Shown here: positions 8,798 through 42,543 of the stretch, piece by piece
How positions within the stretch are numbered: position 1 is the first letter of the stretch
How the letters are laid out: every line of letters starts with the position of its first letter
From: an uncultured Colwellia sp.
GTDB taxonomy: Bacteria > Pseudomonadota > Gammaproteobacteria > Enterobacterales > Alteromonadaceae
Length of the DNA stretch: 45,913 bases
Direction of reading: 5' to 3'
Assembly (NCBI GenBank): GCA_913057925.1
Contig: CAJXPG010000013.1
Location: 1 to 45,913, forward strand
Position numbers and translations under genes: made by a program
Notes under the pieces: generated by a model
What the model was told of the DNA's origin: nothing
What the model saw: the letters and a program-made list of their open reading frames with translations, nothing else
Database searches by the model: none

Positions 8798-9703
8798 TTA
8801 CGCCGTCTCTTCAAGACCATGAGCCGAACGTAGTAGTGTTGTTTTTGATGTATTTAAATGCGTTTCCATCGCCGCTAAAACACCTGAGGTATTGCGTGCA
8901 AGTAATTGAGTGATAATGGCGATATGCTCTTCTATCGCCACTTTATTACGATCTCGTTCATCACCTTTATTCCATTGATAATGGTAGTGACAAATTAAAG
9001 ACACCACATCAAAGAACTGCATAAAGAATCTATTGCCAGAAGCGCGCTGTACTATGTAATGGAATTTGCGGTCAAGCTCACTTAATTCAGTATAACGATT
9101 ATCGACGTCAGCCAAAACTTCCATATGTTTATCTAACAATACCGATAATTCTTCCCAAACAGGATCATCTGCAGGGGTCGCCATTAACTGAGTGATAGAG
9201 TTCATTTCAAGAATACGTCTAAATTGCACTAACTCTAAAGCAAATTTTTCGTCAAACTTTATCATTTGCCATTTGGCACGAGGCTTTTTCTCAATCAAAC
9301 CAAAACGAGAGAATTTGATTAAAAACTCTCTTACCGTAATAGTGTTACAACCCGATGATTTAGCTAACTCAAGCTCAGAGAATTTATCCCCCGGAAGCAG
9401 TTTACCGTGGTTAATTAAATCTAAAAAATAGGTTTCAATGATTTCTTCTTTTGAAGATACGCTATTGCTAGTATCAAAGTAATCTGACTCGATAGGTAAC
9501 CGAACTACCGTTTTATGGTTCTCATTAATTTCAATAACACCTTTATTGGCGAGCTCTTTTAACGCAGTTCGAATGGTAGTACGACTAACATTTAACTGTT
9601 TAGCGAGGGTGTTATCTTTTAATATAATGTTATTGACACTTTCAGCTTCTGAAAAAGATTTCAATATGCTGTTTGCGGTTGTTTGAATCAGGTGACTTTG
9701 CAT
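8798..9703 (-). CDS. GntR-family regulator with two winged helices and an FCD domain
   Basis: 301-residue transcription factor. Residues about 22-68 form a GntR winged helix (LAKQLNVSRTTIRTALKEL), about 84-143 form a second complete one (GKLLPGDKFSELELAKSSG then TVREFLIKFSRFGLIEK), and about 150-290 form an FCD ligand domain with candidate metal ligands D211, H215, H260 and H282. Ordinary FadR/FCD members carry a single DNA-binding domain of about 70 residues before FCD, so the duplication is real rather than a start-site error. FCD proteins usually sense sugar acids or organic acids. Its position beside sulfatases and near a fucose-dehydrogenase-like gene suggests control of this polysaccharide locus, with a fuconate-like inducer as an inference. 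Confidence 0.88.
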   Translation of the reverse strand: MQSHLIQTTANSILKSFSEAESVNNIILKDNTLAKQLNVSRTTIRTALKELANKGVIEINENHKTVVRLPIESDYFDTSNSVSSKEEIIETYFLDLINHGKLLPGDKFSELELAKSSGCNTITVREFLIKFSRFGLIEKKPRAKWQMIKFDEKFALELVQFRRILEMNSITQLMATPADDPVWEELSVLLDKHMEVLADVDNRYTELSELDRKFHYIVQRASGNRFFMQFFDVVSLICHYHYQWNKGDERDRNKVAIEEHIAIITQLLARNTSGVLAAMETHLNTSKTTLLRSAHGLEETA

Positions 9704-15401: not shown

Positions 15402-15443
15402 TAAAATGCCTTTAGCTAGCGCTACGTTATGCTTTATGTTCAT

Positions 15444-16968: not shown

Positions 16969-16995
16969 CGCGCAACTTAACGCTGAGGTTGAAAG

Positions 16996-21712: not shown

Positions 21713-21724
21713 AGGTCAACATTT

Positions 21725-24656: not shown

Positions 24657-24860
24657 CTGCTCTTTCTCTATCTCTTGCGGCATTAAAAATCAACAACTCA
24701 GCCAAGTCTAAACAAAAGACACCTCGCGATACGTAGTTGTTTGATACCTACAAAGTTTACATCTCTCTGAAAAACTTTTTCAAATAATGTTTACTCACTT
24801 GCCTTTTCACCCAGTAACTTCAATAACAAGAACTGAGGGACTATCTACCCTAACCCCACG

Positions 24861-24902
24861 TTGTTGAGCCAAAGTTGTTGAGCCACAGTTGTTGAGCCAC
24901 AG
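24861..24902 (+). repeat. Three tandem 14-bp repeats
   Basis: TTGTTGAGCCAAAG is followed by two exact copies of TTGTTGAGCCACAG. They end 17 bases before the long inverted repeat, so they may bind a second regulator or be a replication-slippage product. Confidence 0.85.
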
Positions 24903-24918
24903 TTTTCACCATTAAATA

Positions 24919-24962
24919 GTATCAAGTTGTCGCATCAGCACTTATTTGCGACAACTTGATAC
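24919..24962. promoter_or_regulatory. Long inverted repeat, copy 1 (proposed operator)
   Basis: Perfect 16-bp arms: GTATCAAGTTGTCGCA at 24919-24934 and TGCGACAACTTGATAC at 24947-24962, with a 12-base spacer. The same element, slightly diverged, lies between the two fucosidase genes at 35649-35691. The right arm contains TTGATA (24956-24961), usable as a -35 box, so a bound protein could block transcription. The right arm ends 207 bases before the sulfatase D start. No T-run follows, and it is 345 bases past the bat operon stop, so a terminator is unlikely. Confidence 0.75.
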
Positions 24963-25169
24963 AAGTAAAAAAAATACCTAAACATTTTTTCTATATATTG
25001 AATTTATAGATTCAGCCACTAAAAACAACTGGATATTAAATACAATAAACACCAAGTAGATTTACCATTAATTATATTTAAGACAGTAAAATTGCACCAT
25101 TACAATAATAACAATAAAAAACCAACACAAAACAAACGAATAAAGTAAATAATAAACACAGGTAAGATA

Positions 25170-26639
25170 ATGGCTTATTTCACAAAAAAACTGATTTTAT
25201 CATCAGTTATTTGCACTTTTTTAATGCTGTCACCGACAAGCTATGGCCAAAGCAGTAATGCTCAAGACGCCCCAGGGACTAAACAACCCAATATACTGTT
25301 CATCCTCGCTGATGATTTGGGTAAAGAGTGGATCAGTGCTTATGGCGCCCAGGATATCTCTACGCCAAATATTGACGAACTTGCTAGCCAAGGTATTCGT
25401 TTTGATAATGTTTGGTCACACCCACAATGTACCCCTTCACGTGTTTCGCTGATCACGGGGCAATACCCCTATGAAAATGGTTGGGTTAACCACTGGGATG
25501 CACCTCGATGGGGACAAGGTTACCTAGATTGGCAGCAAAACCAGAGTGTCGCTAAAGTAATGCAAGATGCCGGTTATGCCACTGTTGCTGCTGGTAAATG
25601 GCAAGTTAACGATTTTCGTATTGAACCAGAAGCTATGAGCAAGCACGGATTTGATGATTACGCCATGTGGACAGGTTACGAAACCGGTGTACCTGAAAGT
25701 GCCGAACGTTATTGGGACCCTTACATCCACACTAAAAAAGGCAGTAAGACTTACCCTGGTGAGTTTGGTGAAGATATCTTTGCCGGGTTTTTATTAAACT
25801 TCATAGAACAAAATAAAGCACAACCTTGGTTTGCTTATTTTGCCATGAATTTACCCCATGCACCTTACACAACTACACCGCATAAAACTAAGCTCAATAG
25901 TAAGCTTGATAAACACAAGGCGATGGTTGAATACGCCGATATTATTTTAGCAAGAATGATTGACCGCCTTGAAGAAATGGGTGAGCGTGAAAATACCATT
26001 ATCATTTGGACAACCGATAATGGTACCAATAAAAGCCTTGTTGGTACCCTTAATGGCCGTAAAGTGCGCGGTGGCAAACAAAAAACTACTGAAAATGGTA
26101 TTAACTCACCCTTTATTATCAGTTCACCCGGATTAATTCCAACCGGCGTGGTGAGTGATGCGCTGATTGACTTTACAGATATTTTACCTACCTTCGCTGA
26201 ATTAGCCAAAACCAATGTACCTAGCGGCTATAAGCTCGATGGTCAATCCTTTGCGCCTTATATTCTTAGCAGAAAATCAGACAGTTCACGTAGCTCCATA
26301 CTTTCCATGGGAGGCATGAATGAAGCACAAGTATCCGATCGAGGCATTGAAAACAAGTTCACCTTTAGAGATCGTGTGATTCGAGATAAAAGATACAAAC
26401 TTTATGTAAATGCCACACAGCCCTTGTCTTATGAAAAGCTAGTTGACTTACAAGCCGACCCACAAGAAAAAGTAAATATTATCAACAGTAAAAAACCTGA
26501 GGTTATTGCCGCCAAAGCAGCCTTAATAAAGGTTGCTCAAGCACAACCGAAACGTGATAACGATCCTAAATATCGTAAAAGACAGGCATTAGCTTGGGAC
26601 AAACCAATTACGGTTAAATCACAAGTATGGAAGCAGTAA
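25170..26639 (+). CDS. Secreted sulfatase D (S1 family)
   Basis: 489 residues with signal peptide (1-26). Active-site motif C87-T-P-S-R91; Ca site ILADDLG; LPHAPY; TTDNGTN. The block that normally reads GKWH is GKWQ here, so the conserved His that contacts the formylglycine is replaced by Gln; the other catalytic positions look intact. This probably marks a different S1 subfamily rather than a dead enzyme. AGG lies about nine bases before the ATG. It is the first gene after the proposed operator and is followed by the beta-helix gene 180 bases later on the same strand. Confidence 0.9.
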   Translation: MAYFTKKLILSSVICTFLMLSPTSYGQSSNAQDAPGTKQPNILFILADDLGKEWISAYGAQDISTPNIDELASQGIRFDNVWSHPQCTPSRVSLITGQYPYENGWVNHWDAPRWGQGYLDWQQNQSVAKVMQDAGYATVAAGKWQVNDFRIEPEAMSKHGFDDYAMWTGYETGVPESAERYWDPYIHTKKGSKTYPGEFGEDIFAGFLLNFIEQNKAQPWFAYFAMNLPHAPYTTTPHKTKLNSKLDKHKAMVEYADIILARMIDRLEEMGERENTIIIWTTDNGTNKSLVGTLNGRKVRGGKQKTTENGINSPFIISSPGLIPTGVVSDALIDFTDILPTFAELAKTNVPSGYKLDGQSFAPYILSRKSDSSRSSILSMGGMNEAQVSDRGIENKFTFRDRVIRDKRYKLYVNATQPLSYEKLVDLQADPQEKVNIINSKKPEVIAAKAALIKVAQAQPKRDNDPKYRKRQALAWDKPITVKSQVWKQ

Positions 26640-26741
26640 AGTGAATTTTTTCACACGTAATTAGCTAAATAATTAATGCGAATAAACGTACGCACATCAA
26701 TACGTTCAATTCAAAGGTTGCCAAGACACCTGAAGTATTCA

Positions 26742-26770
26742 ATTTATATTTATATTTATATTTATATTTT
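26742..26770 (+). repeat. ATTTAT hexamer microsatellite before the beta-helix gene
   Basis: Four exact copies of ATTTAT followed by ATTTTATT, 50-78 bases before the start codon. Slippage here could change promoter spacing; a fixed AT-rich UP-type element is an alternative. Confidence 0.6.
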
Positions 26771-26819
26771 ATTCAAAAAAAACTAAAACCTAAAACATAA
26801 TAACAAGCGGTATCACTCT

Positions 26820-29800
26820 ATGAGAATCAATAAAAATCTGAGTAAAATAACTAGTTTTATTGCGTTAGCACTTTGCGCCGAAACTAATGCGCAAGACTAC
26901 TACGTTGATGTCAATGCATCTAATGATGGCTCAGGCACACTAGTCGCTCCTTTTAACAGCCTATCAAATGCTATCACCGAAGCACTTAATGAAAAAACAG
27001 GTGGTGACACCATTTATTTGCGCGAAGGCCGTTACCAAACGCCTATTGTTATGTCAGATATTGGTGACGCCAGCAACCCTATTACCATAACCGCGTTTAA
27101 TAATGAAAAGGTGATTATTGATGGCTCAAAATCCATTAGTGAGTTGGGCGGTAGTCACTGGACACCAATCGATGGCCTAAATGGCAGCTCGCCTATTTAT
27201 AAAACCACCCTTTCACAAGATATTTGGCAACTCTGGGTAGATGACAAAATGGCAGTCGTTGCCCGTTGGCCTAATGTTACCCTAGGACACCCAACTGATC
27301 CCATTCATTTAAAGGCGGATCATGTCACGCCTAAAGATGGCTCATGGTGGGATTTAAACGGCACTTGGGCTCACATGAGCGAAGGCTGGAGCGAAACCAG
27401 TGGTAATGCCACCATGAAAAACAATCGTGATTACCATGATTTAGCTGCGTTAAATAAAAGCATCGCTGGTGGCTCAGTTATTTTAAACTTTCACTCTGAA
27501 ACACAGTTTTCTCGCAATATCACTCAGCATACTGCCGGCACCAATGAGTTTGAATATGACAAAGTAAAACGCCCTTTTGATAAAGGCCAAGGGCACTTTA
27601 TTATTGAACATAAAAATGCGCTAGATATGCCGGGCGAGTGGTACTTTGATAAAGACACTAAAGAAGTGTGGTTATGGCCGGAAGTGGGCCAAAGTATTGC
27701 TGAATTAAACAATGTGGTACGGGGTAAAGTTTCAACTTACGCTTTTGATTTAACTAATGCCCAGCACATAACCATTAAAGGTTTGACCTTTTTTGGTACA
27801 ACTATTTCATGTGTTCAGTGTGACAGCATGACTATTGATGGCAACAAGTTTTTATACCCGTCATGGCATGATCGCATGTTAGGGAATCATCGCATTGTTG
27901 ATGATACTCCCAAAAAAGATGCTGAAGGTTATAACGTTACCGCCGATGGCGTTGGCAAAGGTGATACCATCTTTTTTGGCAGTAATTACCGTATTATCAA
28001 TAATGAATTTGCCTACAGCGATGCTACCATCGAGATGCGTCGCCACAATGACAATCGTTCTCCTGAAAACAACCAAGTAGAAAACAACTTGTTTCATCAC
28101 TTCAGTTTTTCAGGTATGGCATTATCAATATTGGGTATGAATTCCAACAAAGGTGATTCTTGGCAAAAAAGAAATACCTTTCATACCCATGGATCACGCG
28201 CCATGTCAAAAGTCGCGCATGTTGATGTCAGTATGTCACGCGCTTCTCATTGGGGCTATTTTCAACAAGACGGCGTTGCTTGGCAAGCCGCGGGTGGTGA
28301 AGGTGCTGGTGGCGGTAGTGATGGCACAACGCGTCACCATTTATGGGTGCATGACTCAGTTAAGCCAGCTGTTCGCTGGGACGGTTTTGATGGTATTAAT
28401 GGCACAGATCACCATGAGGTAGCGGTAAATGTCCCCGGTTTTGGCATGATTAAGGGGGATTACCACCAAGTGTATAATAGCGTTGGGGTGTTATCTCATG
28501 ATCCCAACGAAACCATGTTTAAAATCCTCAATACTAATGAGAAGTGGCATAACGCGCCGGGAGATGATACTCACTACCCACGTAATGAAAACACATTAAT
28601 CAAAAACAACTTGTCTGACTCAATATCAGGCCAACGTATCGGCTATTTAGCGCTAACTGCTACTGATGAGAATAACTGGAACGGTTATTTACAGAACACC
28701 CTTGCTGCCGAGCAACTACGTGATGCCATTAACTTTGATTTCAGACCTAAAGCTAGCTCAACAGGATTGATTAACCAAGGGCAAGTTATTGCAGGTATTA
28801 ACGATGATGTTGCCGATGGCCTTCCAGATATTGGTGCTTATGAACACGGCGCAAGTTATTACTGGATACCGGGGTATCAATACCCAGATAAAGCAACATC
28901 ACCCGTACCACGCTTGGCAACATTAAATGCAAAAACAGATGCTGACCTAATGTGGTTAAAAGCTAAAGGTGCCGTTGAAGAGAGACTCTTTTTTGGTACG
29001 TCACCTGATTCCTTAACAGAAATGGCCACCTTTACCGGCGACAACAATATCTATACACCTGGAGCATTAACACCTTATCAAACCTATTTTTGGCGCATTG
29101 ATACCAAAACGGCTGAATCGGGTAGTGATTTTATTACCGGTGACATTTGGTCGTTTAGTGTTGAAAAACCGCTAGTTAGAACAAAACAAACGGTTGTTAT
29201 CACTGAAGATACCCATGTAGAACGTGGTAATCCAACAAAAAACTTTGCTGATGCACTCGATCTTAAAATTCATACCACCGACAGCGGTGAGATTGATAAA
29301 GTTGCCCTATTGAAATTCACTATTCCAAGTGTTGCCAATAGCAAATTAAGCAAGGTAACACTGCGTGTTCACACAGATTTAACCGCTGCAACTAAAGGGG
29401 CCAAACTGTATGTAATGCCTGATAGCAGTTGGAGTGCGAATACGATCATATGGAATGATATGCTTGATATCAATAACTTAGGCACATTCATTGCTACCTT
29501 TGATATTGCCGCTAACAGCTGGCAAGAGGTTGATATCAGTGCCTATATTTCTGAGGGAGTAACTGAAGGAGAGCTTACATTTGCCATAAGTCGAGAGCCA
29601 AATACCAACAACCGAGCCATAGACTCTGCTGAATCAGCCTATCCACCTGAGTTAGTGGTTGAACATCAGGAAATCAACCCTGATGCGCCACCTCTAGCCC
29701 CTAAGAGCTTAACCAGTAGCAATACATCACAGGGGATATCACTTACTTGGGATGAGGTTTCAGGCGCGAAGGGATATAACGTTTATCGTCGTATAACTCC

Positions 29801-30374
29801 GGAAGATTTTTTTGTTACGCCGCTAAACGCAGTTCCATTAACAACGCTAAACTTCAACGACACAAAGGCTTCATTAAATACTAACTATCAATATGTCGTT
29901 AAAGCTGTAGGACAAAATGATAAGGAGTCGTATAACTCTGACGTTCATATAACAGCGTTGATGGATAAAGATATCGATGGCATGGCAGATAGTTGGGAGG
30001 ATTTTCATGGTTTAGATAACAACATCAATGATAGTGCCCTTGATGCCGATGCAGACAACATAACAAACCTTGAAGAGTATCTCGCTGGTACTACACCAAA
30101 TGGTGATAGAACAGATACCGACAACTCTGGTAGTGATAACTCTGGTGGTGATAGCTCTGGCGGTGATAGCTCTGGCGGTGATAGCTCTGGCGGCGATAGC
30201 TCCGGTGGTGATAGTTCTGGCGGTGATAGCTCCAGCGGTGATAGCTCTGGTGGCGATAGTACAAGTGATGAAACAAGTGAAAGTAGTGGTGGCTCAAGCA
30301 GTTATTACTTTATATTGCTGATACTTGCCGCCTTTTCACGCAAAAAAAAGCTATTGAAACTACATTTTAGCTAA
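26820..30374 (+). CDS. Multi-domain beta-helix carbohydrate enzyme with GlyGly-CTERM tail
   Basis: 1184 residues. Signal peptide 1-24; right-handed parallel beta-helix about 25-690 (YYVDVNASNDGSGTLVAPFNSL start, then GDTIYLREGRY and repeated strand turns); fibronectin-like domain 695-785; a DNRLRE/CBM96-like carbohydrate-binding domain 790-947; fibronectin type III 957-1040; a Ca-binding thrombospondin-3-like segment 1048-1089 (DKDIDGMADSWE, DADADNITNLEEY); a DSSGG repeat linker 1100-1145; and a GlyGly-CTERM tail 1155-1184 (GGSSS, hydrophobic helix, then RKKKLLK). GlyGly-CTERM proteins are exported by type II secretion and cut by rhombosortase for surface attachment. Catalytic family is not certain; beta-helix families that act on fucose polymers (GH141, GH174) or polysaccharide lyases are candidates. 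Confidence 0.82.
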   Translation: MRINKNLSKITSFIALALCAETNAQDYYVDVNASNDGSGTLVAPFNSLSNAITEALNEKTGGDTIYLREGRYQTPIVMSDIGDASNPITITAFNNEKVIIDGSKSISELGGSHWTPIDGLNGSSPIYKTTLSQDIWQLWVDDKMAVVARWPNVTLGHPTDPIHLKADHVTPKDGSWWDLNGTWAHMSEGWSETSGNATMKNNRDYHDLAALNKSIAGGSVILNFHSETQFSRNITQHTAGTNEFEYDKVKRPFDKGQGHFIIEHKNALDMPGEWYFDKDTKEVWLWPEVGQSIAELNNVVRGKVSTYAFDLTNAQHITIKGLTFFGTTISCVQCDSMTIDGNKFLYPSWHDRMLGNHRIVDDTPKKDAEGYNVTADGVGKGDTIFFGSNYRIINNEFAYSDATIEMRRHNDNRSPENNQVENNLFHHFSFSGMALSILGMNSNKGDSWQKRNTFHTHGSRAMSKVAHVDVSMSRASHWGYFQQDGVAWQAAGGEGAGGGSDGTTRHHLWVHDSVKPAVRWDGFDGINGTDHHEVAVNVPGFGMIKGDYHQVYNSVGVLSHDPNETMFKILNTNEKWHNAPGDDTHYPRNENTLIKNNLSDSISGQRIGYLALTATDENNWNGYLQNTLAAEQLRDAINFDFRPKASSTGLINQGQVIAGINDDVADGLPDIGAYEHGASYYWIPGYQYPDKATSPVPRLATLNAKTDADLMWLKAKGAVEERLFFGTSPDSLTEMATFTGDNNIYTPGALTPYQTYFWRIDTKTAESGSDFITGDIWSFSVEKPLVRTKQTVVITEDTHVERGNPTKNFADALDLKIHTTDSGEIDKVALLKFTIPSVANSKLSKVTLRVHTDLTAATKGAKLYVMPDSSWSANTIIWNDMLDINNLGTFIATFDIAANSWQEVDISAYISEGVTEGELTFAISREPNTNNRAIDSAESAYPPELVVEHQEINPDAPPLAPKSLTSSNTSQGISLTWDEVSGAKGYNVYRRITPEDFFVTPLNAVPLTTLNFNDTKASLNTNYQYVVKAVGQNDKESYNSDVHITALMDKDIDGMADSWEDFHGLDNNINDSALDADADNITNLEEYLAGTTPNGDRTDTDNSGSDNSGGDSSGGDSSGGDSSGGDSSGGDSSGGDSSSGDSSGGDSTSDETSESSGGSSSYYFILLILAAFSRKKKLLKLHFS
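30120..30254 (+). repeat. Nine 15-bp repeats encoding the D(S/N)SGG linker
   Basis: In-frame units of the form GATAGCTCTGGCGGT. In protein order they are DNSGS, DNSGG, five DSSGG, DSSSG and DSSGG. Third-base differences show that the array is not freshly duplicated, but unit number may vary between strains. Confidence 0.9.
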
Positions 30375-30416
30375 ACAACGTTCGAACTAAACAACGTTTG
30401 AACTAAACAAGGTTAC
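30371..30416 (+). repeat. Three tandem 16-bp repeats after the beta-helix gene
   Basis: CTAAACAACGTTCGAA, CTAAACAACGTTTGAA and CTAAACAAGGTTACGC follow each other, and the first overlaps the stop codon. The AACGTT centre is palindromic. Function unknown. Confidence 0.75.
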
Positions 30417-30569
30417 GCTAGCGATCAATTGAGCTTAAGGTATCAGAGGAACGTTAGCTTATTACACAGGGATAAATTGACTCATTCTGCCTAAATACCC
30501 ACGGCTAGCGCATTTTAGGCCCTTACTGTATATGACTTGAGAAATAGCTCTTAAGATTCAACAATACTC

Positions 30570-30975
30570 TTAACTTCTCTAGCGTCGCGGTGGCGACAAC
30601 ACCCAGAGAGGGCTATCGCCGAGCCCTCTCTGGACTCTCCCGGCGCTGCGAGTAAAACCTAATATTCCATTCAATCAGTGCTTCGAGGTGCCGCGTTAAT
30701 GAACATCCCTGTCCAACGCCGCTTTTTCATCATCCTTGATGAAAACACCTGCGCACTTTCAATCATTTCAGGGTTTTACCACGCAGATTCAGCACTTTTA
30801 GCTTGTTTGGTGCTCAATTCTCGTATTTGAAAGTGTTGGGGTGTCACAAATATTGGCAATGTGATGTGTTACTGAGGTGATAAGAGTGAGTATCACAAGC
30901 ATGGATGCTTGTGTTAAGCCCCATGGATGGGTTTATGCGTCTCACTTGTTTACTCAGTAATGCGGAACTAAGAGG
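30570..30975. repeat. GC-rich, multiply base-paired non-coding element
   Basis: No reading frame. Several perfect stems were found: CCAGAGAGGGCT/AGCCCTCTCTGG (30603-30633); CTGCG plus GTAAAACC pairing with GGTTTTAC plus CGCAG (30646-30659 with 30772-30786); TTTTCATC/GATGAAAA (30724-30745) inside it; and a nested cluster with TTACTGAG/CTCAGTAA (30869-30960) enclosing AGTGAG/CTCACT, CACAAGCAT/ATGCTTGTG and CCCAT/ATGGG, both with GG loops. The first half is much richer in GC than the flanks. It looks like a dispersed palindromic repeat or a structured RNA; no second copy is in this window. Confidence 0.6.
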
Positions 30976-31103
30976 TCTTAACTAGAAATGATGAAATACA
31001 GAAAAGCCATATAGACAGTGGAGTTTAAATGCGCTTGCCTTGCCTAAATATCTAGTACCAAGGATTGTCATATATCTTCGAGGGATGGGGAAATAGACCT
31101 TTC

Positions 31104-31135
31104 AAAACCCTTCAGCTGCATAGCTGTAGGGTTTT
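31104..31135 (-). terminator. Terminator of the toxin-antitoxin operon
   Basis: AAAACCCT pairs with AGGGTTTT, with an inner AGCT/AGCT stem, 29 bases after the toxin stop. The minus strand ends the stem with TTTT. Confidence 0.65.
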
Positions 31136-31163
31136 ATCAAATAAGGAACAAATACAGTTGCCT

Positions 31164-31442
31164 TTACTCAGGTGGGAAATTCTGCTTTTGGTGTAAAACT
31201 CGCATTATTCTAATGGTTTCATTATCGATCCAATAAGAAACAATCATTGATATTTCGGGGGTAATTAGCACTCTTCCACGAAAAATGTCTCTTTTAACAC
31301 CCATTAGTGGCTGTGTTAGTAAGTTCTCAACTCTAGCTACAATAGTTCGATCAGTTTTTTCTGCTGCACTTGGATTAAAATCAAAAAGAAACTCAAATAT
31401 TTTTTCACGATCATTTAGTGATTCTTCTTCCCAAAAGATCAT
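31164..31442 (-). CDS. RelE/ParE-type toxin
   Basis: 92 residues with the RelE/ParE fold pattern: an N-terminal strand (MIFWEEESLND), two helices (REKIFEFLFDFNPSAAEKTDRTIVARVENLL), then GVKRDIFRGRVLITPEISMIVSYWIDNETIRIMRVLHQKQNFP, including the typical Arg-rich strand and final VLHxxxxxP. Members either cut mRNA on the ribosome or inhibit gyrase; which one cannot be told. Its ATG shares one base with the antitoxin stop (TAATG), so translation is coupled. Confidence 0.88.
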   Translation of the reverse strand: MIFWEEESLNDREKIFEFLFDFNPSAAEKTDRTIVARVENLLTQPLMGVKRDIFRGRVLITPEISMIVSYWIDNETIRIMRVLHQKQNFPPE

Positions 31443-31723
31443 TATTTGTCTCTATTACGGATTTTCTGTTTTCTTGCTTCCATTAAAGATTTCGCTTCAT
31501 CATGTTCAATAAAATTAGCTCTTCCGTTATCAAACTTGTCAAATGCTGCATTTATTTGTGCCGATAACCATACATCATGACACATAGTTTTTCTCTGCTC
31601 TTCAGCTAAACTTTCTGCAAGTTCTCGGCATGCGTCGCTAAGAGTACGGCCTTGGCTTTCAGCCATAAGCTGTGCTAAACGTTTCGTTTCTTCATCAACT
31701 CTAAATTGAATGCGAGTGTCCAT
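31442..31723 (-). CDS. RelB/DinJ-type antitoxin
   Basis: 93 residues with an N-terminal ribbon-helix-helix DNA-binding part (MDTRIQFRVDEETKRLAQLMAESQGRTLSDACREL) and a C-terminal helical toxin-binding part. The first gene of the pair, with AAGG about nine bases before ATG; such antitoxins repress their own promoter. It stands directly beside the structured repeat element and downstream of sulfatase E, and may stabilise this accessory stretch. Confidence 0.88.
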   Translation of the reverse strand: MDTRIQFRVDEETKRLAQLMAESQGRTLSDACRELAESLAEEQRKTMCHDVWLSAQINAAFDKFDNGRANFIEHDEAKSLMEARKQKIRNRDK

Positions 31724-31760
31724 TCTAAGTTACCTTAAATAAAACTTTGTACTCACAAAT

Positions 31761-31792
31761 GTTAGCACCACAATTAATCTGTGGCAACTAAC
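31761..31792 (-). terminator. Hairpin downstream of sulfatase E
   Basis: GTTAG/CTAAC and CCACA/TGTGG form a stem with small internal asymmetry and a 7-base loop, 58 bases after the sulfatase stop. No clear U-run. Confidence 0.4.
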
Positions 31793-31850
31793 AAGCGAGT
31801 TAACGACACACTCTTATTTAGAGAAGTCAGTTTGTCATGATTGATGGACG

Positions 31851-33356
31851 TTATTCTTCACCGCGATAAGTTTCATCATAACGTTTGTAATCTTTATGGT
31901 TATACAGGTGCTTATTAATGACTGCAGGACTCGCTAATTTCTTTAATTCCCTTTTACCTGACTTAGTCTGCCAGTGCGGGTGATCTTTAGTTATTGCAGG
32001 TAATTGTGCCATAAAGCCATTGAACTTCTCGCGCGCTTTAGCGTGCTCTGGGTTGCCATCAGCAAGTATATAACCATGACCAAAACGGTTATCTCCAGTA
32101 TAATAGAAGCGACCTTTTGCCATGTTCATCACCGGATTAACCACTTCTAACATATACTGTTTGGTACGAAATATTTGTGATGTGCCCGCATAACCGTATA
32201 TCCACTCTCTATGATTATCAGACTTCCCTAAGTAAAAATCTTTTAAGCTAACACCATCAAACTTATGATTTTCAGGCACAAAGTCCCATGCTCCTGCAAT
32301 ATCAATTAAGGTTGGCGTAATATCTGATAAGTCAGTTAATTCATAGCTAGCTCCGCGCTTTTTAATACCAGCACCTGCAGCAATATGCACAACATGAGAA
32401 CCACGTTCAACACCACGTGTTTTGGCAGTGACCGCAGTACCATTGTCTGAGGTAAAAATAATAATCGTATTGTCACTAATACCTAATGACTCAACTTTTG
32501 CGACAACCTCACCTACTTTTAAGTCCATATATTCAATCAATGATTTAAAACGTTTATCGTTTTCATCATTACTTTCTTTACCTTTTCCACTTGCCGGAGC
32601 TAGGCTGCCCTGCTCACCACGAAGTGGATTTGTTGGCATGCCTGTACGTGTGCCATGTGGCGCTACTGTTGGCCAGTAAGCTAAAAACGGTTTATTGGCT
32701 TTAACGTTCTTTTCCATAAAATCCATGATGAAATCTGCTTCAATATCGAGGCTGTAATCTGATGGCTTAGTGTCCATCAATTTACCGTTTTTAACGTAGC
32801 CTGGATGCCAGTAACGTGACGTGGTTTTTTTATCTTCCATTAAACCAGTAAACTTAGGTGAGCCTTTTAATTTAGCGATTTCTTTTGTACCTTCCCATAA
32901 AGCGTACTCATCAAAGGCTAAGGCTTCATCATGTGGCATCTGAATACCGGCATGCCATTTACCGGTAATCGCAGTCGCGTAGCCTGAATCTCTTAGTACA
33001 CGACTAAACGGGATATTGTCGCTATAGACATTTTTCCGAGAATCGCCCATCCAAATCTCATTGACATAAACCCCCGTGGTATTGGCGTAACGCCCAGTCA
33101 TGATTTCAACACGACTAGAGCCACATTTGGCTGTTGCATATGTCGTTTGAAAACGAACACCTTGCTGCGCTAATTTATCAATATTGGGTGTACTGGCTGC
33201 ACCCTCTTGCCCATAAATACTGAACATATCAGGGCTAACATCATCAGCTAAAATTAAAATTATATTTGGTTTTGATGCCAAAGCTTGACTAATAAAGCCG
33301 ATAAATAACAGCAAGGTTGTCGTTAATATGATTAAAGATTTTTTAACGTAACTCAT
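31851..33356 (-). CDS. Secreted sulfatase E with non-standard active-site motif
   Basis: 501 residues with signal peptide (1-28, cleaved after ALA). S1-type blocks are present: ILADDVS metal site, GKWHAG, APHGTR, FTSDNGT. The formylglycine motif, however, is C78-G-S-S-R82, where family members normally have C-x-P-x-R (or C-x-A-x-R). I re-read the codons (TGT GGC TCT AGT CGT) and they are unambiguous, within an intact frame. Start ATG has AGGA seven bases upstream. It is the second gene after the leftward fucosidase (154-base gap) and so is probably under the operator at 35649. Activity as a sulfatase depends on whether a maturase accepts Ser at the Pro position. Confidence 0.85.
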   Translation of the reverse strand: MSYVKKSLIILTTTLLLFIGFISQALASKPNIILILADDVSPDMFSIYGQEGAASTPNIDKLAQQGVRFQTTYATAKCGSSRVEIMTGRYANTTGVYVNEIWMGDSRKNVYSDNIPFSRVLRDSGYATAITGKWHAGIQMPHDEALAFDEYALWEGTKEIAKLKGSPKFTGLMEDKKTTSRYWHPGYVKNGKLMDTKPSDYSLDIEADFIMDFMEKNVKANKPFLAYWPTVAPHGTRTGMPTNPLRGEQGSLAPASGKGKESNDENDKRFKSLIEYMDLKVGEVVAKVESLGISDNTIIIFTSDNGTAVTAKTRGVERGSHVVHIAAGAGIKKRGASYELTDLSDITPTLIDIAGAWDFVPENHKFDGVSLKDFYLGKSDNHREWIYGYAGTSQIFRTKQYMLEVVNPVMNMAKGRFYYTGDNRFGHGYILADGNPEHAKAREKFNGFMAQLPAITKDHPHWQTKSGKRELKKLASPAVINKHLYNHKDYKRYDETYRGEE

Positions 33357-33510
33357 AGTAAATCCTACTTGATTTTCAATTTAGTTCTAACTTAACAATT
33401 ACCATTGACGGTGTGATGCAATGAGTAACCATAAAATTAATAAGAAACACCTACATAAAACAAGCGCATAAAAGTAAAACGTAAATACGCCATTACCAAC
33501 AATTTAAGCG

Positions 33511-35427
33511 CTACTCCTCCATTGATTGATTCGAGGCAATTAACTCAATAACATCGATATCAATATTCATTGCACGATAGCGCTGATCTTGTGCTTTAAA
33601 CGCTTTAGTGCTGGCTGTTAACTCAAAGGCTTGACCTTGTTTCAAGGTGACTTTTTGAATACCTGCTTGATTAAAGCTTAATTCACCGAGGTAACTTTCA
33701 ATAAATTGACCTGAATTTTTACTGGCCTTTACTTTGTCAACAGGTGCTTGCTCGTTACCATCAAATGCCTGTAGAGCCTCTACTTTCTTCCCTTTACCTT
33801 TAAGGTTGAATGCCAACTCATCACTTGTACTAGCGATAACAAAATCTTTTTCTTTATAACGCATTTTATAGTGTATTTTTACTTGGTATTGACCTGCTTT
33901 AGGGACATCAACATACCAACTGCGCGAGAAGTCTTTTAACATAGAGCGGTAACTTTCCTTACCAAATTTCCCCTGCTTGGTGGCATCTTCGCCGACTAAG
34001 GTAATTGTGCCGTTTTCGTTGGCTTTACTATGACGAGGCACAATGGTTAATTCACCATGGTAATCTAGCTTTAAAATAGTTAAATAAGGATCTTGCTTAA
34101 TAGCTCTAAGATTAATGATAGTATCGCCACCTTGTTGGATTACTGATAATTGACTATCACTATCCGTTAACAAACTAACTTGCTCTACAGCGTTTTCTAA
34201 GCCCGGTAATACTAATTTGTTATTCTGCGGCCATTGATGAATATGCAGATATAAACTTCCAGCTTTGGTAGATACTTGTCCCCAGGGTAATTTAAGAAAT
34301 GGGTTTAAGCCCGTTTCAAAAATAGCCTCTTTATTTTGCTCTACCCAGCCACCAACACCGACTAAAACATCTTTTTCGTAAGCTAATATACTGCCGTCAC
34401 CTTTAGGGCCGATGTTAAGTAAAAAGTTTCCTCCCATGCTAGCAATGTCTGAAAGTTTTGCTACTTGTACCGCTATTTGTTCTTCAAGTGGCAAGCCTGT
34501 AACCCAAGATTTGTAACCCCAAGTATGATAAAAAGTGCCTGGGGTTTCCCAAGGGTATTCAGTGATTGGCGAATCGGGTACATGATTATCAGGCATGGTC
34601 AAAAAGTCCCCCTGATTATTCATTACTCGGCCATTAATTAAGGCATTAGGTTGATACTTCTTAACTATCTCTCGAAAACGTTTGCTTTGCGCCAGCGTTG
34701 GCTCGCCCATATCAAAAAATACTTCGACAATTTCACCGTAATTACTCATTAATTCTTCAAGCTGCGCTACTTGGAAATCTTCATTGGCTTTTGATACTTT
34801 ACCAAAAACACTGATCTTGCCATCAACTGGATTACGCTCGGGGTTCGGGCCATTAAAATGCCAATCTGGCGTTGAATAATATAAACCCAGTTTTAAACCA
34901 TGGCGCTGACAAGCATCACTAAGCTCTTTTAATATATCCTTTTTGTAATCGGTATAATCAACAATATCAAAGTCGGTATGTTTGGAGTCAAACATGGCAA
35001 AACCATCATGATGCTTGGTGGTTAAAACGATGTAGCGCATACCCGCTTTTTTAGCGAGCTTGGCAATCGAGTCAGCATCAAAGTTTTCAGGATTAAAGTT
35101 TTTAACCACGTCCTGATAATCTTGCTGTGAAATATCCGCATGACGTTGAATTTGCTCACCTAGTTTTTCTATTTCTTTCCCTTGCCACATGCCCGCCAAA
35201 TCAGCATAAGCGCCAAAGTGAATAAACAAACCAAATCGCATTGCTTGCCATTTGGCAATAGCTTGCTCGGTTTGTTTTTGCTGTTGAGCGCTTTTATCAA
35301 GCTGAACTTTTGTCAGGGTTAGAGCTTTAGCTACCTCAGCATCTAATTGCTGCTGACTACATCCGGCTAATATCAATACAGACATTACACTGCTGATCAT
35401 TATTTTCTTGGTTGATTTAGAAAACAT
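33511..35427 (-). CDS. GH29 alpha-L-fucosidase lipoprotein 1
   Basis: 638 residues. Lipoprotein signal peptide with lipobox L-A-G-C23, so it is probably anchored to an envelope membrane. The GH29 catalytic domain covers about 55-390: RFGLFIHFGAYAD, TKHHDGFAMFDSKHTDFD and the nucleophile block VEVFFDMGE with D239. A C-terminal beta-rich part (about 400-638) may bind sugar. GH29 enzymes release terminal L-fucose with retention. Start ATG 35427 has GAAGGA five bases upstream; the frame opens further to 35475 but without support. It is first in a leftward pair with sulfatase E, driven from the region holding the second inverted repeat. Confidence 0.92.
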   Translation of the reverse strand: MFSKSTKKIMISSVMSVLILAGCSQQQLDAEVAKALTLTKVQLDKSAQQQKQTEQAIAKWQAMRFGLFIHFGAYADLAGMWQGKEIEKLGEQIQRHADISQQDYQDVVKNFNPENFDADSIAKLAKKAGMRYIVLTTKHHDGFAMFDSKHTDFDIVDYTDYKKDILKELSDACQRHGLKLGLYYSTPDWHFNGPNPERNPVDGKISVFGKVSKANEDFQVAQLEELMSNYGEIVEVFFDMGEPTLAQSKRFREIVKKYQPNALINGRVMNNQGDFLTMPDNHVPDSPITEYPWETPGTFYHTWGYKSWVTGLPLEEQIAVQVAKLSDIASMGGNFLLNIGPKGDGSILAYEKDVLVGVGGWVEQNKEAIFETGLNPFLKLPWGQVSTKAGSLYLHIHQWPQNNKLVLPGLENAVEQVSLLTDSDSQLSVIQQGGDTIINLRAIKQDPYLTILKLDYHGELTIVPRHSKANENGTITLVGEDATKQGKFGKESYRSMLKDFSRSWYVDVPKAGQYQVKIHYKMRYKEKDFVIASTSDELAFNLKGKGKKVEALQAFDGNEQAPVDKVKASKNSGQFIESYLGELSFNQAGIQKVTLKQGQAFELTASTKAFKAQDQRYRAMNIDIDVIELIASNQSMEE

Positions 35428-35892
35428 AAAATCCTTCAAAGCTGAATCATAAAAATACTTATTGAGGAAAATCACTTATCATTTTCCTTAACAAACCACA
35501 CAAAGTGCACTTTATATCCAATAAACACTCACTTCAAGTATTCTTGTTTAAACACTATATAAGGTAAAATTCTTCTCAACATACTGTTACAGGTAGATTT
35601 TAACTAAAAAAAATATCAATCCCGCACTAATCTACGGAATTTTAATTTGTATCAAGGTGTCGCAAAAAACACCGTTACGACAACTTGATACAAAACGCAC
35701 AGTAAACTGACTAGTTCACCAATCGATAACAAGGTTAATATTAATAAAAAACACAGCAAACTTGTCTGAGTTTAGATTGCGAGCACACAGTAATACCGCT
35801 TGAGGTATAAAAGTCAGTTCAAATCAATCGGGCATACTTAACCAAGCATAATCAACCAAGTGAGAATCACTTTTCTACGATTGGGATACCAG
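35428..35892. other. Divergent regulatory region between the two fucosidases
   Basis: 465 bases without a gene. The second long inverted repeat is close to its centre; about 220 bases lie on its left and 201 on its right. The rest is AT-rich leader sequence for both genes; no further strong repeat was seen. Confidence 0.7.
35646..35694. promoter_or_regulatory. Long inverted repeat, copy 2 (proposed operator)
   Basis: Arms GTATCAAGGTGTCGCA (35649-35664) and TACGACAACTTGATAC (35676-35691), 14 of 16 paired, 11-base spacer. Three further outer pairs (TTT/AAA) extend it to 19 bp per arm. The right arm matches copy 1 at 15 of 16 bases and the left arm at 15 of 16. TTGATA occurs outward on both sides. 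The right arm ends 201 bases before the start of fucosidase 2, almost the same distance as copy 1 to sulfatase D (207). Confidence 0.75.
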
Positions 35893-37437
35893 ATGAAAAA
35901 GCTAACAAGAATAATGACAAGCATATTAACCGCTTGCGCGGTATCGTCATGTTCATCAACACAAAACATTGAAGCAGAACAAACGGTTGCTACAGCAAAA
36001 TACGCCCAAGACTGGCATTCATTATCGGCTCATGAAGCAGCCCCACAGTGGTATCAAGACGCCAAGCTAGGTATTTACCTACACTGGGGCGTTTACTCAG
36101 TACCAGCATTTGCCAGTGAATGGTATCCAAGATGGATGCACGTTGAAGGCCGTAAAGAAAACAAACACCATATTGAAACTTACGGTGAATTAAATGCATT
36201 TGGTTACCATGATTTTGTGCCTATGTTTAAAGGTGAACACTTTGATCCACAAGCTTGGGCTGAATTGTTTAAAAAAGCAGGGGCTAAATTTGCTGGCCCG
36301 GTAACTGAACACCATGACGGTTTTGCCATGTGGGACAGTGATATAACGCCATGGAACGCTATGGATAGAGGGCCTAAAGTAGATGTGACAGGTGAGCTTA
36401 AAAAAGCTATTACCGGCGAAGGTATGAAGTTTATTACCACCTTTCACCATTCAAGACAGTTACAACGCTACAGCCCTATTAATAAAAAAACGCCAAACAA
36501 GCCCAATGAACGATTCGGCGGTAGCCATTTCCCTTACTTTGAAAATACACCGCCAGCCAGTAACGACCCAGAGCTTGCTTTATTATACGGTAACTTACCT
36601 GAAGCCGAATGGAATGAGAAAGTTTGGTTTGCTAAGTTAAAAGAGGTAATTGACAAGTATCAACCTGACATTGTCTGGTTTGATTCTTGGTTACATTTAG
36701 TGCCAGAAGCATACCGAAAAAAGTTTGCTGCATATTATTTAAATGAAGCTAAAAAGCTTAATAAAGAAGTGGTTATCATCAGAAAACAAGATGACTTACC
36801 GTTATCATTTTCCTTGGATGATTTAGAAAAGTCACGCAAAAACCACATAGGCGAGCAGCCATGGATGACCGACGAAACTATCAGTAAAGGTAGCTGGTCT
36901 TACACTGAAAACTTACGGGTGAAAAAAGCGAAAGATGTGTTACATGTGCTTATCGATGTGGTTAGTAAAAACGGCACCATGCTGCTAAATGTATCGCCAA
37001 AAGCCAATGGTATTATTCCACAGAACCAACAAGCGGTGTTATTAGAAATGGGCGCGTGGTTAGAAAAATACGGTGAAGCTATTTATGCCACTCGCCCTTG
37101 GTATACCTTTGGTGAAGGACCAACCAAAGAGCCAGAAGGTCACTTTAAAAATCATAGAGAATTTGCCAAGGTTAAATACACCAACCAAGACATTCGTTAT
37201 ACCAGCAAAGGCAATATCATTTATGCAACGGTACTGGGTACTCCAGAAGGTAAAATAACACTTAACGCTTTTGCTAAGGCTGAATTAGCAAAGGATATCG
37301 GCATTGTTAAAGTTAATGCGTTAGGAACAGATGAAAAAGTAACCTGGTCACTGACCGATGATGCGTTAATTATCACGGCGTCAACTCAACCAATAGATGC
37401 CATGGCAACGGTGTTTAAAATTGAGCTTGCTGACTAA
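35893..37437 (+). CDS. GH29 alpha-L-fucosidase lipoprotein 2
   Basis: 514 residues. Signal peptide ending in AVSSC20, a weak lipobox, so lipoprotein is probable. GH29 domain about 40-420: KLGIYLHWGVYSVPAF, EHHDGFAMWDSD and nucleophile block DIVWFDSWL with D264; a short beta domain follows. It differs clearly from fucosidase 1 (for example EWYPRW in an early loop), so the two are not recent duplicates and may cleave different linkages. Start ATG 35893 with GGGA about eight bases before; the frame is open from 35860. A very strong terminator follows. It is monocistronic and divergent from fucosidase 1. Confidence 0.92.
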   Translation: MKKLTRIMTSILTACAVSSCSSTQNIEAEQTVATAKYAQDWHSLSAHEAAPQWYQDAKLGIYLHWGVYSVPAFASEWYPRWMHVEGRKENKHHIETYGELNAFGYHDFVPMFKGEHFDPQAWAELFKKAGAKFAGPVTEHHDGFAMWDSDITPWNAMDRGPKVDVTGELKKAITGEGMKFITTFHHSRQLQRYSPINKKTPNKPNERFGGSHFPYFENTPPASNDPELALLYGNLPEAEWNEKVWFAKLKEVIDKYQPDIVWFDSWLHLVPEAYRKKFAAYYLNEAKKLNKEVVIIRKQDDLPLSFSLDDLEKSRKNHIGEQPWMTDETISKGSWSYTENLRVKKAKDVLHVLIDVVSKNGTMLLNVSPKANGIIPQNQQAVLLEMGAWLEKYGEAIYATRPWYTFGEGPTKEPEGHFKNHREFAKVKYTNQDIRYTSKGNIIYATVLGTPEGKITLNAFAKAELAKDIGIVKVNALGTDEKVTWSLTDDALIITASTQPIDAMATVFKIELAD

Positions 37438-38001: not shown

Positions 38002-39258
38002 TTAAATATCAACCGGCGATTCAAAAATTACTGATGCTGTGCAACCACCACCTAGGTTGTTTTTTATACTAAACTGCCAGTGATATTTTTCACATATATC
38101 TCTAACTATATTAAGCCCAATACCAAAGCCTTCATATCCACGAGGTTTAGCATCAAGTCCAACACCATTATCAATAACATCGATTCGTTGTGGTGAGATA
38201 AATAAACTTACCTTACCGTTAACACTACAATTAATGGCATTTTTTAATAAATTATTAACGACTGCAGAAAATAATAATGGTTGTACGTTTAAGCTAAAAT
38301 CACATTGTATTTCTTGATGAAAAATCACCTGGTTTGCTTTTATTGTCGATTCAAAACCTTGTACTATTTGATCGATAAATTCTGCAGAAATATCAACATT
38401 AATGGTATCGCTCTCTTCATTTCTCGCCATTAACAAAAAAGTATGAATTAACTGTTCCATTTCAATGACAGCATGATCAATTCGATTAGACTGCTTTTTA
38501 ACTTTTTCGTCATCTAAGCGCCGTAAAATACTGATACCACCACGAATAACTGTCATCGGCGTACGAAGTTCATGACTAACGTAGCGAGTAAAAGCTTGCT
38601 CTCTCATAAACGCATCGTGGATTCTACTTCGATAACTATTGATACTCGTTAACATTTGTACCAATTCAAGCGATAATTCACCATCAACCATGAGGGGTGT
38701 GTAATTTTCTTTATCATTATTTTCTAACTGATTAGCCAAGTTAGAAAATGGGGTACTAATTCGTTTTGCCATTTTTATAATAAAAAGTGCTGCGATAATA
38801 TAGATAAATAAACCAAGCCCAAAGATCACCGCTTGGAAAATCGCGAATTCGGTATCATCCCATTCTATAGCATCTATATCTTCCAAAGCATAGACAATAG
38901 CTATCCCCTTTTTGGTAATAACTTCCTGCGAAAAGACACTGTATTCACTGTCATCTTCAAAATGGAAGGTGATACTTCCCTGCCAGTTATTATTGAGTCT
39001 TCGCTTAATGGATGGTGGTAATATATCGTATTCGTCATAGATTTTAAGCATGGGATCAATTTGAATTTCTCCCTCAAAACCTTGGCTAAATAACTTAAAG
39101 TGGTAGGGTGAGATTAATGCTAAACGGCGTTCACTACTTTGATTTTCAGTATATAAAATAGTGTGATAAAAAATAGCGCCATAAAATGCTAACAGTACCA
39201 TTGCCCCCACTAAATAAATATGGATAATCTTACTACTCATTGGCTTTGCGTTAATCAT
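38002..39258 (-). CDS. Sensor histidine kinase
   Basis: 418 residues. Membrane segments about 12-33 and 138-162 enclose a periplasmic sensor of about 100 residues that is acidic near its end (EDDSEYS, EDIDAIEWDD), which could bind cations. HisKA with phospho-acceptor H229 (YVSHELRTP), then ATPase with N box (NNLLKNAINC), DNGVG and GFGIGL. The ATG overlaps the response regulator stop region by 8 bases, so the two are coupled. It is last in the GT2-GT39-regulator-kinase operon, which suggests that it responds to envelope charge or cationic stress; the ligand is unknown. Confidence 0.92.
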   Translation of the reverse strand: MINAKPMSSKIIHIYLVGAMVLLAFYGAIFYHTILYTENQSSERRLALISPYHFKLFSQGFEGEIQIDPMLKIYDEYDILPPSIKRRLNNNWQGSITFHFEDDSEYSVFSQEVITKKGIAIVYALEDIDAIEWDDTEFAIFQAVIFGLGLFIYIIAALFIIKMAKRISTPFSNLANQLENNDKENYTPLMVDGELSLELVQMLTSINSYRSRIHDAFMREQAFTRYVSHELRTPMTVIRGGISILRRLDDEKVKKQSNRIDHAVIEMEQLIHTFLLMARNEESDTINVDISAEFIDQIVQGFESTIKANQVIFHQEIQCDFSLNVQPLLFSAVVNNLLKNAINCSVNGKVSLFISPQRIDVIDNGVGLDAKPRGYEGFGIGLNIVRDICEKYHWQFSIKNNLGGGCTASVIFESPVDI

Positions 39259-39928
39259 GATTCAGTACCATGCGGTAACCTAATTTGGGCACCGTCTCTA
39301 TAATATTTTCGGTAAAAGGTTTATCTACCTTATTACGAAGTTGATAGACATGTTTGCGTAATATATCTTGGTCGGGTAAATCATCAGGCCACAACACTTC
39401 TTCTAACTCTTGTCGTAAAACAACATTGGGCGATTTTTTAACGAGAAGATGCAAAATCTTAAAACAAATAGGGGTTAATTGGATTTCTTGCTTACCTCGC
39501 CACACTTGATGGGTATTGATATCTAAGGTAATAGGGCCACAAGTCATTTGTGTGATAAAACCTGAGCCTGAATGACGACGAGTAACACTGTGAATACGTG
39601 CTTCAAGTAATTCTAAATTAAAAGGCTTAACAATATAATCATCTGCCCCTTGGCGTAGTCCTAATAACATATCCGTATGAGTATCTCGTGCAGTTAGCAT
39701 TATAATGGGTGTGTTATTTCCCTCGGCTCTCAGCTGGTTACAAATGCTAATGCCATCGAGACCAGGCAACATAATGTCTAGAATAATACAGTCAAATTTT
39801 TGAGCTTGTGCTAATGATAACCCTAAGGTACCCGTAGCTGCGTAGTCTAGGTCAAAATCTGAGTCTTCAAAATAATCAAAAATGACTTCAGCAACACTTT
39901 GACAATCTTCTACTAATAATATTTTCAA
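39251..39928 (-). CDS. OmpR-family response regulator
   Basis: 225 residues: receiver domain (about 1-115) with phospho-acceptor D51, T79 and K101, and a C-terminal winged helix (about 130-222; LTPICFKILHLLVKKSPNVV, then RKHVYQLRNKVD). The start is TTG at 39928, supported by AGGA seven bases upstream. It lies 37 bases after the GT39 gene and overlaps the kinase. Likely activates its own operon or related envelope genes. Confidence 0.93.
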   Translation of the reverse strand: MKILLVEDCQSVAEVIFDYFEDSDFDLDYAATGTLGLSLAQAQKFDCIILDIMLPGLDGISICNQLRAEGNNTPIIMLTARDTHTDMLLGLRQGADDYIVKPFNLELLEARIHSVTRRHSGSGFITQMTCGPITLDINTHQVWRGKQEIQLTPICFKILHLLVKKSPNVVLRQELEEVLWPDDLPDQDILRKHVYQLRNKVDKPFTENIIETVPKLGYRMVLNHD

Positions 39929-39965
39929 GAGAGGATCCTTACCTATATCTGTATAATGAGTGTAA

Positions 39966-42396: not shown

Positions 42397-42543
42397 TGTT
42401 CTCTCCAAAATAAATTCTGGTGTTACTTTAAAACAAGCGAGGTCTAAAAAAAGTCACTCTTATCTCGACAACGTTAGTGACAATTTTTAGACCTTACAAA
42501 CGATAAGCTGAACTTATAGTTTCAAATCATTAATGTGGAAGTA

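What the first reader, a model, noticed from the sequence alone, without database searches (positions are those of the whole stretch)
24919..35694. A long inverted repeat occurs at two promoter regions of the fucoidan-type locus
Two copies 10.7 kb apart share 16-bp arms (left GTATCAAG-T/G-TGTCGCA, right T-G/A-CGACAACTTGATAC), with spacers of 12 and 11 bases. Arms match 15 of 16 between copies while the spacers differ. Both sit in the promoter region of polysaccharide genes, and their right arms end 207 and 201 bases before a start codon. Copy 2 sits between divergent fucosidases. Conserved arms, unconserved spacer and equal placement argue for a protein operator of a regulon. TTGATA in the arm could be a -35 box, so repression by occlusion is inferred.
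Basis: partly seen in the sequence, partly recalled or inferred. Interest (0 to 1): 0.85.

Follow-up and report, generated by a model that had tools for sequence, protein, structure and literature searches.

The report
Doubled OmpR-type boxes of a polysaccharide regulon
Two mirror-image DNA sequences in front of fucose- and sulfate-removing enzyme genes of a marine bacterium are most likely landing sites for a two-component response regulator encoded on another contig, which probably switches on these genes, an outer-membrane receptor gene and its own gene.

Summary
The repeat is real. The window copies (24919-24962, 35649-35691) are two of five two-arm sites found in the 4.38 Mb draft genome. 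The other three, on contig C21, precede a response regulator (RR)/kinase pair, an OmpR-like orphan, and a TonB-dependent receptor with a divergent secreted-protein gene. "Regulon operator" is supported. The window's GntR as binder is not: of 10 relatives carrying a site, only 2 have a GntR ortholog, while all 10 carry it upstream of an RR homolog (51-86% identical). Each arm reads as an OmpR-type tandem box (GTATCA-N4-GTCGCA, 10-bp period), so the site is two boxes facing each other. A -10-like hexamer starts about 32 bases beyond the site edge at RR promoters, suggesting activation from about -44 to -87 rather than occlusion of a -35 box; this is inferred and weak at the other promoters. Against: one RR ortholog (G048) has no site; target genes turn over (in G237 three of five orthologs of structural targets lack a site); the weakest relatives' sites are near background. 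Verdict: new variant of a known kind, an OmpR/EnvZ-paralogous, apparently autoregulated system controlling sulfated-polysaccharide genes. No binding or expression is shown.

The parts
24919..24962 (.). Site 1: two 16-bp arms, perfect dyad, 12-base spacer; before a sulfatase gene
   Evidence: -10-like TATATT starts 32 bases past its right edge
35649..35691 (.). Site 2: arms 14 of 16 complementary, 11-base spacer; between divergent GH29 fucosidase genes
   Evidence: hexamer at the expected offset absent on the + side and weak (GATATT) on the - side
24994..24999 (+). Proposed -10 element TATATT of the sulfatase promoter (inferred)
   Evidence: offset 32-37 from the edge of site 1
25170..26639 (+). 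Sulfatase, proposed target of site 1
   Evidence: Pfam Sulfatase 2e-45; its G237 ortholog has no site
26820..30374 (+). Protein with CBM96 and a weak chondroitinase-B match; same direction 180 bases after the sulfatase, possibly same operon (inferred)
   Evidence: Pfam
33511..35475 (-). GH29 alpha-L-fucosidase, proposed leftward target of site 2; the ORF begins at GTG 35475, a later ATG at about 35427 is a likelier start (read from the translation)
   Evidence: Pfam Alpha_L_fucos 1.3e-69; its G237 ortholog has no site
31851..33356 (-). Sulfatase downstream of the leftward fucosidase, possibly same operon (inferred)
   Evidence: Pfam
35893..37437 (+). GH29 alpha-L-fucosidase, rightward target of site 2
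   Evidence: Pfam Alpha_L_fucos 1.2e-99 for the ORF 35860-37437; its G237 ortholog (80%) also has a site upstream
8798..9703 (-).
   Evidence: Pfam FCD and GntR; distribution in relatives

Best explanation
The repeat is the operator of an OmpR-family response regulator encoded on contig C21 of the same genome (C21:14230-14940, with an EnvZ-like kinase at 14937-16328). Each 16-bp arm is an OmpR-type box: hexamers GTATCA and GTCGCA in the same direction at a 10-bp period, fit for a head-to-tail dimer. Two boxes face each other across 11-12 bp, giving four half-sites that can serve promoters on either side. The regulator probably activates its own operon, an OmpR-like orphan gene, a TonB-dependent receptor, two fucosidases and a sulfatase, from about -44 to -87. 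Shown by computation: five sites in one genome, association of the site with this RR rather than GntR, the 10-bp grammar, the place of the site before the RR. Inferred: binding itself, control by phosphorylation, activation rather than repression, and a polysaccharide-derived signal.
For: Five sites, three of them on C21 at RR/kinase, orphan regulator and receptor. In 395 family genomes 8, own included, have an RR of 66% identity or more; 7 of these 8 have the two-arm site at the RR promoter, 5 of 8 by the strict pattern, which hit 1 other of 295 genomes, a terminator-like hairpin; Fisher P 2e-8, genomes not independent. A symmetric site precedes an RR (53% over the part on the contig) in G422, of another family, the only other hit in 394 genomes of the order. 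Site edge to RR start 47-88 bases in the 9 RR promoters. GTNNCR pairs on one strand 6-25 bp apart in 13 RR upstream regions: 14 of 20 at exactly 10 bp. The DNA-binding domain matches solved OmpR best. G237 repeats the arrangement: one site between receptor and RR, one before the fucosidase. -10-like hexamer at fixed offset, P 0.0006 for 9 RR promoters. The promoter-proximal arm is nearer consensus in 6 of 9 RR promoters, equal in 2, worse in 1.
Against: G048 has an RR of 66% with the same recognition-helix stretch as the other seven but no site. Of five G237 orthologs of own structural targets, two (receptor, one fucosidase) have a site and three (sulfatase 25170, fucosidase 33511, the secreted protein) do not; G003's 54% fucosidase has none. 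Scores of 19-21 in G169, G051 and G189 are near background: an unrelated RR locus (L083) also reaches 19. Most RRs of 43-57% identity have no such site: 19 of the 22 loci under 66% examined. The -10 offset was first seen by eye, is not significant for 16 non-RR flanks (P 0.18, best window elsewhere) and is marginal for the 7 own-genome flanks (P 0.06); an unweighted count was less clear. RR and kinase fall below NCBIfam's OmpR and EnvZ cut-offs.
Confidence: 0.8

Rival explanations
1. The site is the operator of the GntR/FCD regulator encoded in the window, which occludes the -35 region until a sugar ligand releases it.
For: GntR lies on the same contig, and G237 and G003 have both a GntR ortholog and a site. 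Palindromic operators are usual for GntR proteins (recalled).
Against: 8 of 10 site-bearing relatives lack a GntR ortholog; G339 has a 92% GntR but no site found (with the caveats given); no site near the GntR gene itself in the window. Arms are direct repeats at 10 bp.
Confidence: 0.06
2. The site belongs to the OmpR-like RR but works as a repressor, or as repressor and activator by position.
For: OmpR-family regulators can do both by position (passage in PMC7380067). Non-RR flanks do not show a -10 at the activator offset.
Against: RR-promoter flanks place the site upstream of the proposed -35 region.
Confidence: 0.2
3. The binder is the orphan OmpR-like protein without a recognisable receiver (C21:16562-17197), or it shares the sites with the RR.
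For: It has its own site, an OmpR-type DNA-binding domain, and relatives in G237, one of them next to a site.
Against: Apart from G000 and G237, G196 has one 34% partial match and G259, G135, G180 and G003 only matches of about 100 residues over the DNA-binding domain, as expected for any CpxR-like protein, yet these five have the site.
Confidence: 0.07
4. RNA hairpin: an attenuator or terminator rather than a DNA site.
For: Copy 1 is a perfect 16-bp dyad.
Against: Over 16 sites the arms differ at 54 positions and change alike at 5; no T-run directly follows either window copy.
Confidence: 0.02

Closest known systems
E. coli EnvZ/OmpR and the OmpR box GTTACAnnnnGTTACA (one passage of PMC7315122)
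   Same: GT..CA hexamers in direct repeat at a 10-bp period; RR and kinase score best with the OmpR and EnvZ models; DNA-binding domain closest to solved OmpR.
   Different: Below both curated cut-offs (249.8 of 331 bits, 190.9 of 415); hexamer letters GTATCA/GTCGCA; boxes set as an inverted pair; targets are polysaccharide genes, not porins.
OmpR-family regulators on dyad sites: AgrR, CopR, PcoR (passages of PMC7380067)
   Same: OmpR-family protein on a symmetric site, type II activation and autoregulation proposed for AgrR.
   Different: There the two hexamers themselves are inverted (6-4-6); here hexamers are direct repeats and whole boxes are inverted.
RR/kinase pairs beside RND pumps in G051, G169, G189 and G422 (this study)
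   Same: RR 51-55% identical, two-arm site at the RR promoter.
   Different: Divergent neighbour is an HlyD-type adaptor, with an ACR_tran pump confirmed beside it in G051 and G189; hexamers drift. I found no experimental description.

Membership tests
OmpR/PhoB-family response regulator (proposed binder) | Receiver plus winged-helix Trans_reg_C domain | tested here: met
   Pfam Response_reg 8e-28 and Trans_reg_C 1.1e-20; acidic pair, phospho-acceptor Asp, Thr and Lys present in the alignment (hallmark residues recalled)
OmpR itself (equivalog) | NCBIfam NF007005 cut-off | tested here: not met
   249.8 bits against 331, though the best model
EnvZ itself (equivalog) | NCBIfam NF007004 cut-off | tested here: not met
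   190.9 bits against 415
OmpR-type DNA box | Hexamers in direct repeat, 10-bp period | tested here: met
   14 of 20 pairs at 10 bp; at least one GTNNCR-N4-GTNNCR in 11 of 13 RR upstream regions, the strict form missing G000 and G048
OmpR-type DNA box | Letters GTTACA in both hexamers | tested here: not met
   GTATCA and GTCGCA; only GT..CA shared
OmpR-type DNA box | Bound by the RR | not testable with these tools
   needs gel shift or footprint
GntR/FCD operator | Occurs with the GntR regulator | tested here: not met
   GntR ortholog in 2 of 10 site-bearing relatives
Intrinsic terminator or attenuator | Compensating arm changes, T-run after the stem | tested here: not met
   54 differing against 5 shared changes; no T-run directly after the stem

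The most novel reading that the evidence does not exclude
A branch of OmpR/EnvZ paralogs, shared with RND-pump control, has been recruited to run sulfated-polysaccharide uptake in this marine family. It uses a doubled, convergent OmpR box of four half-sites whose symmetry lets one regulator assembly fire two divergent promoters (fucosidase/fucosidase, receptor/RR), with a receiver-less OmpR-like protein as an internal modulator.
Probability: 0.33. Interest if true: 0.68.

Novelty: new variant of a known kind. Interest (0 to 1): 0.55.

Why it matters
It gives a candidate regulator pair, an operator with an explicit grammar and a five-site regulon for a fucoidan-type locus of a marine gammaproteobacterium, all directly testable. 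None of the titles or abstract openings listed by my searches describes such control (listings only; one search returned no paper). It shows an OmpR-type box used as a mirrored pair, hints at how an envelope-regulator lineage was reused for nutrient uptake, and ties two contigs of a draft genome into one functional unit.

Tried and rejected
Rejected: GntR as binder; RNA hairpin; the orphan OmpR-like protein as general binder; the window's own RR at 39251-39928, whose best NCBIfam models are MtrA and heavy-metal regulators and which has no site before it. The G210 hit (L055) is a long perfect stem followed by a T-run, 9 bases after a stop codon, and was set aside as a terminator. Reading each arm as an inverted CAA-N-TTG repeat was dropped because positions 8-9 vary.

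Led nowhere or limited: the GTDB-wide pattern scan was set with too short a gap, so it could not find 12-base-spacer sites. Of its 10 hits I kept L051 (the G422 record) and L052 (the G135 record) and set aside L055; the other 7 I judged chance from their letters, with reading frames looked at for L054 only. A scan at the 12-base spacing with up to 3 mismatches in 5 genomes added two weak matches, in G135 and G180. The relaxed pattern found nothing in 8 genomes, including five (G003, G196, G051, G169, G189) where scoring finds degenerate sites, so absence by pattern is weak evidence. Orthologs of five structural targets in G237 were checked; three have no site. The exact arm letters occur in no held paper.

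Rows dropped before counts: G135 (same site as G259) and G422 are not among the 16 sites / 32 arms. The Fisher table counts G210 as a site without RR. In one search the 30 best RR loci of 120-odd matches were scored, not all. The tree has long branches and a weak root; only its two supported clades are used.

Full report
What is there. Both copies are as described: GTATCAAGTTGTCGCA / TGCGACAACTTGATAC with a 12-base spacer at 24919-24962, and GTATCAAGGTGTCGCA / TACGACAACTTGATAC with an 11-base spacer at 35649-35691. Copy 1 is a perfect dyad, copy 2 has two mismatches. In 3,669,640 positions of simulated window-like sequence nothing scored above 20 of 26 on the two-arm score; both copies score 26.

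Genome-wide list. A single-arm search with up to 3 mismatches in the own assembly (4.38 Mb, 260 contigs, 93% complete) gave 66 matches against 49 for the reversed control. Ten of the 66 are the arms of five two-arm sites: two in the window, three on contig C21 at 14103-14146, 16447-16489 and 20880-20923. The other six arms with up to 2 mismatches lie inside stop-to-stop reading frames of at least 150 codons; the rest have 3 mismatches and were not examined. The C21 sites precede an OmpR-family response regulator and its kinase (14230-14940, 14937-16328), an OmpR-like protein in which Pfam finds no receiver (16562-17197), and lie between a TonB-dependent receptor (21139-24045) and a divergent large protein with weak Ig-like matches (17820-20633). 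In the window the targets are a sulfatase and two GH29 fucosidases. So the two copies belong to a five-site set that includes regulators.

Which protein binds. In 295 family genomes a two-arm pattern hit 6: the own genome, G259, G135, G180, G237 (two sites) and G210; the G210 hit is a terminator-like hairpin. In the four other relatives a site lies just upstream of an ortholog of the C21 RR, 68-86% identical. A protein search of 395 family genomes found 8, own included, with an RR of at least 66%. Scoring the 30 best RR loci found the two-arm site in 7 of these 8 (not G048); among the other 22 loci I accept G189 (21 of 26), G051 (20) and G169 (19), because they lie at the same place with a 12-base spacer, but an unrelated locus (L083) also reaches 19, so these three are less sure. 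A symmetric site precedes an RR in G422, of another family, the only hit besides the own genome in 394 genomes of the order. The GntR has orthologs (51% or more) in G237 and G003 but not in the other 8 site-bearing relatives, where the best match is 24-29% or absent. G339 has a 92% GntR in a syntenic locus with sulfatases (91% and 75%) and bat genes, but no match to a relaxed pattern and no score above 18 in the 60 kb around it. That negative is qualified: the pattern also misses the degenerate sites of five other genomes, and G339 has no fucosidase closer than 38%.

Anatomy. Over 32 arms of 16 sites GTATCAA and TGTCGCA are conserved and position 8 is nearly free, position 9 less so. As hexamers, GTATCA and GTCGCA stand in direct repeat at 10 bp. 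In 13 RR upstream regions 14 of 20 same-strand GTNNCR pairs 6-25 bp apart are at exactly 10 bp, and 8 of 11 in the seven more divergent regions. G339's RR promoter has GTCTCA, GTCGCA and GTATCA in one direction at 10-bp steps. This is the grammar of the OmpR box as given in a passage of PMC7315122. The RR's DNA-binding domain matches solved OmpR best (the full-length protein hits MtrA first), and its best NCBIfam model is OmpR, below the cut-off. The stretch HGREAKAFDRSIDN of the DNA-binding domain is identical in all 8 RRs of 66% or more, including G048. The window feature is thus two OmpR-type boxes set face to face.

Direction of action. About 32 bases beyond the site edge a -10-like hexamer begins: TATATT at site 1; TATTCT, TACACT, TATATT and TATGTT at C21 flanks; TATACT, TATAGT and TATAGT at RR promoters of G237, G259 and G003. 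I saw the offset by eye before testing. With random shifts and the maximum over offsets, P is 0.0006 for 9 RR promoters, 0.003 for all 25 flanks, 0.06 for 7 own-genome flanks and 0.18 for 16 non-RR flanks, where the best window is elsewhere; a plain match count was less clear. Site 2 has no good hexamer there on the + side. The proximal arm is nearer the consensus in 6 of 9 RR promoters, equal in 2, worse in 1. This places the site at about -44 to -87, which fits activation.

Target turnover. In G237, orthologs of the receptor and of fucosidase 35860 have a site in the 400 bases upstream; orthologs of sulfatase 25170, fucosidase 33511 and the secreted protein do not. G003's 54% fucosidase has none. 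G196 has a second site between a GH10-like gene and a sulfatase, and G180 a weaker second one before a TonB receptor. The constant member is the RR promoter.

Family and history. The RR tree has two supported clades. One holds the own genome, G237, G003, G259/G135, G196, G180 and G048; sulfatases or TonB receptors stand beside the RR or its sites in G180, G196 and G237, and an outer-membrane efflux protein is divergent from it in G259. The other holds G051, G169, G189 and G422, where an HlyD-type adaptor is divergent from the RR, with an ACR_tran pump confirmed in G051 and G189. An ACR_tran pump and adaptor also lie on C21 (24697-28973). In G237, GntR, fucosidases, sulfatases, receptor, RR/kinase, orphan regulators and bat genes lie within about 55 kb of one contig, so the C13 and C21 parts may be one locus.

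Novelty. The exact arm letters occur in no held paper. Searches on fucoidan plus two-component systems, Colwellia plus fucoidan, polysaccharide loci plus regulators, and OmpR plus TonB receptors listed nothing that describes this, judged from titles and abstract openings; most subscription papers are not held. OmpR-family sites with dyad symmetry are known (AgrR, CopR, PcoR; passages of PMC7380067), but there the hexamers themselves are inverted. I file this as a new variant of a known kind.

Noticed in passing
window 24856-24904: Short tandem repeat (14-base unit CCACAGTTGTTGAG, 3.6 copies, 91% matches) ends 14 bases before site 1.
   Followed up: no
window 15970-24574: A MoxR/BatA-BatD-like gene set lies between two groups of sulfatase genes; its orthologs also lie near the sulfatases in G237 and G339.
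   Followed up: partly
C21:16562-17197 (L031): OmpR-like orphan with a DNA-binding domain but no receiver found by Pfam, with its own site; two relatives in G237, one of them next to a site.
   Followed up: partly
C21, just upstream of 16447 (L031): A run of CCAAAA units precedes the site before the orphan regulator (seen).
   Followed up: no
window 38002-42936: A second two-component pair stands beside PMT-type, GT2 and GtrA genes, a set that looks like envelope glycan or lipid modification.
   Followed up: no
L107:9945-9980 (G339): RR promoter with three OmpR-like hexamers in one direction at 10-bp steps instead of two facing boxes.
   Followed up: partly
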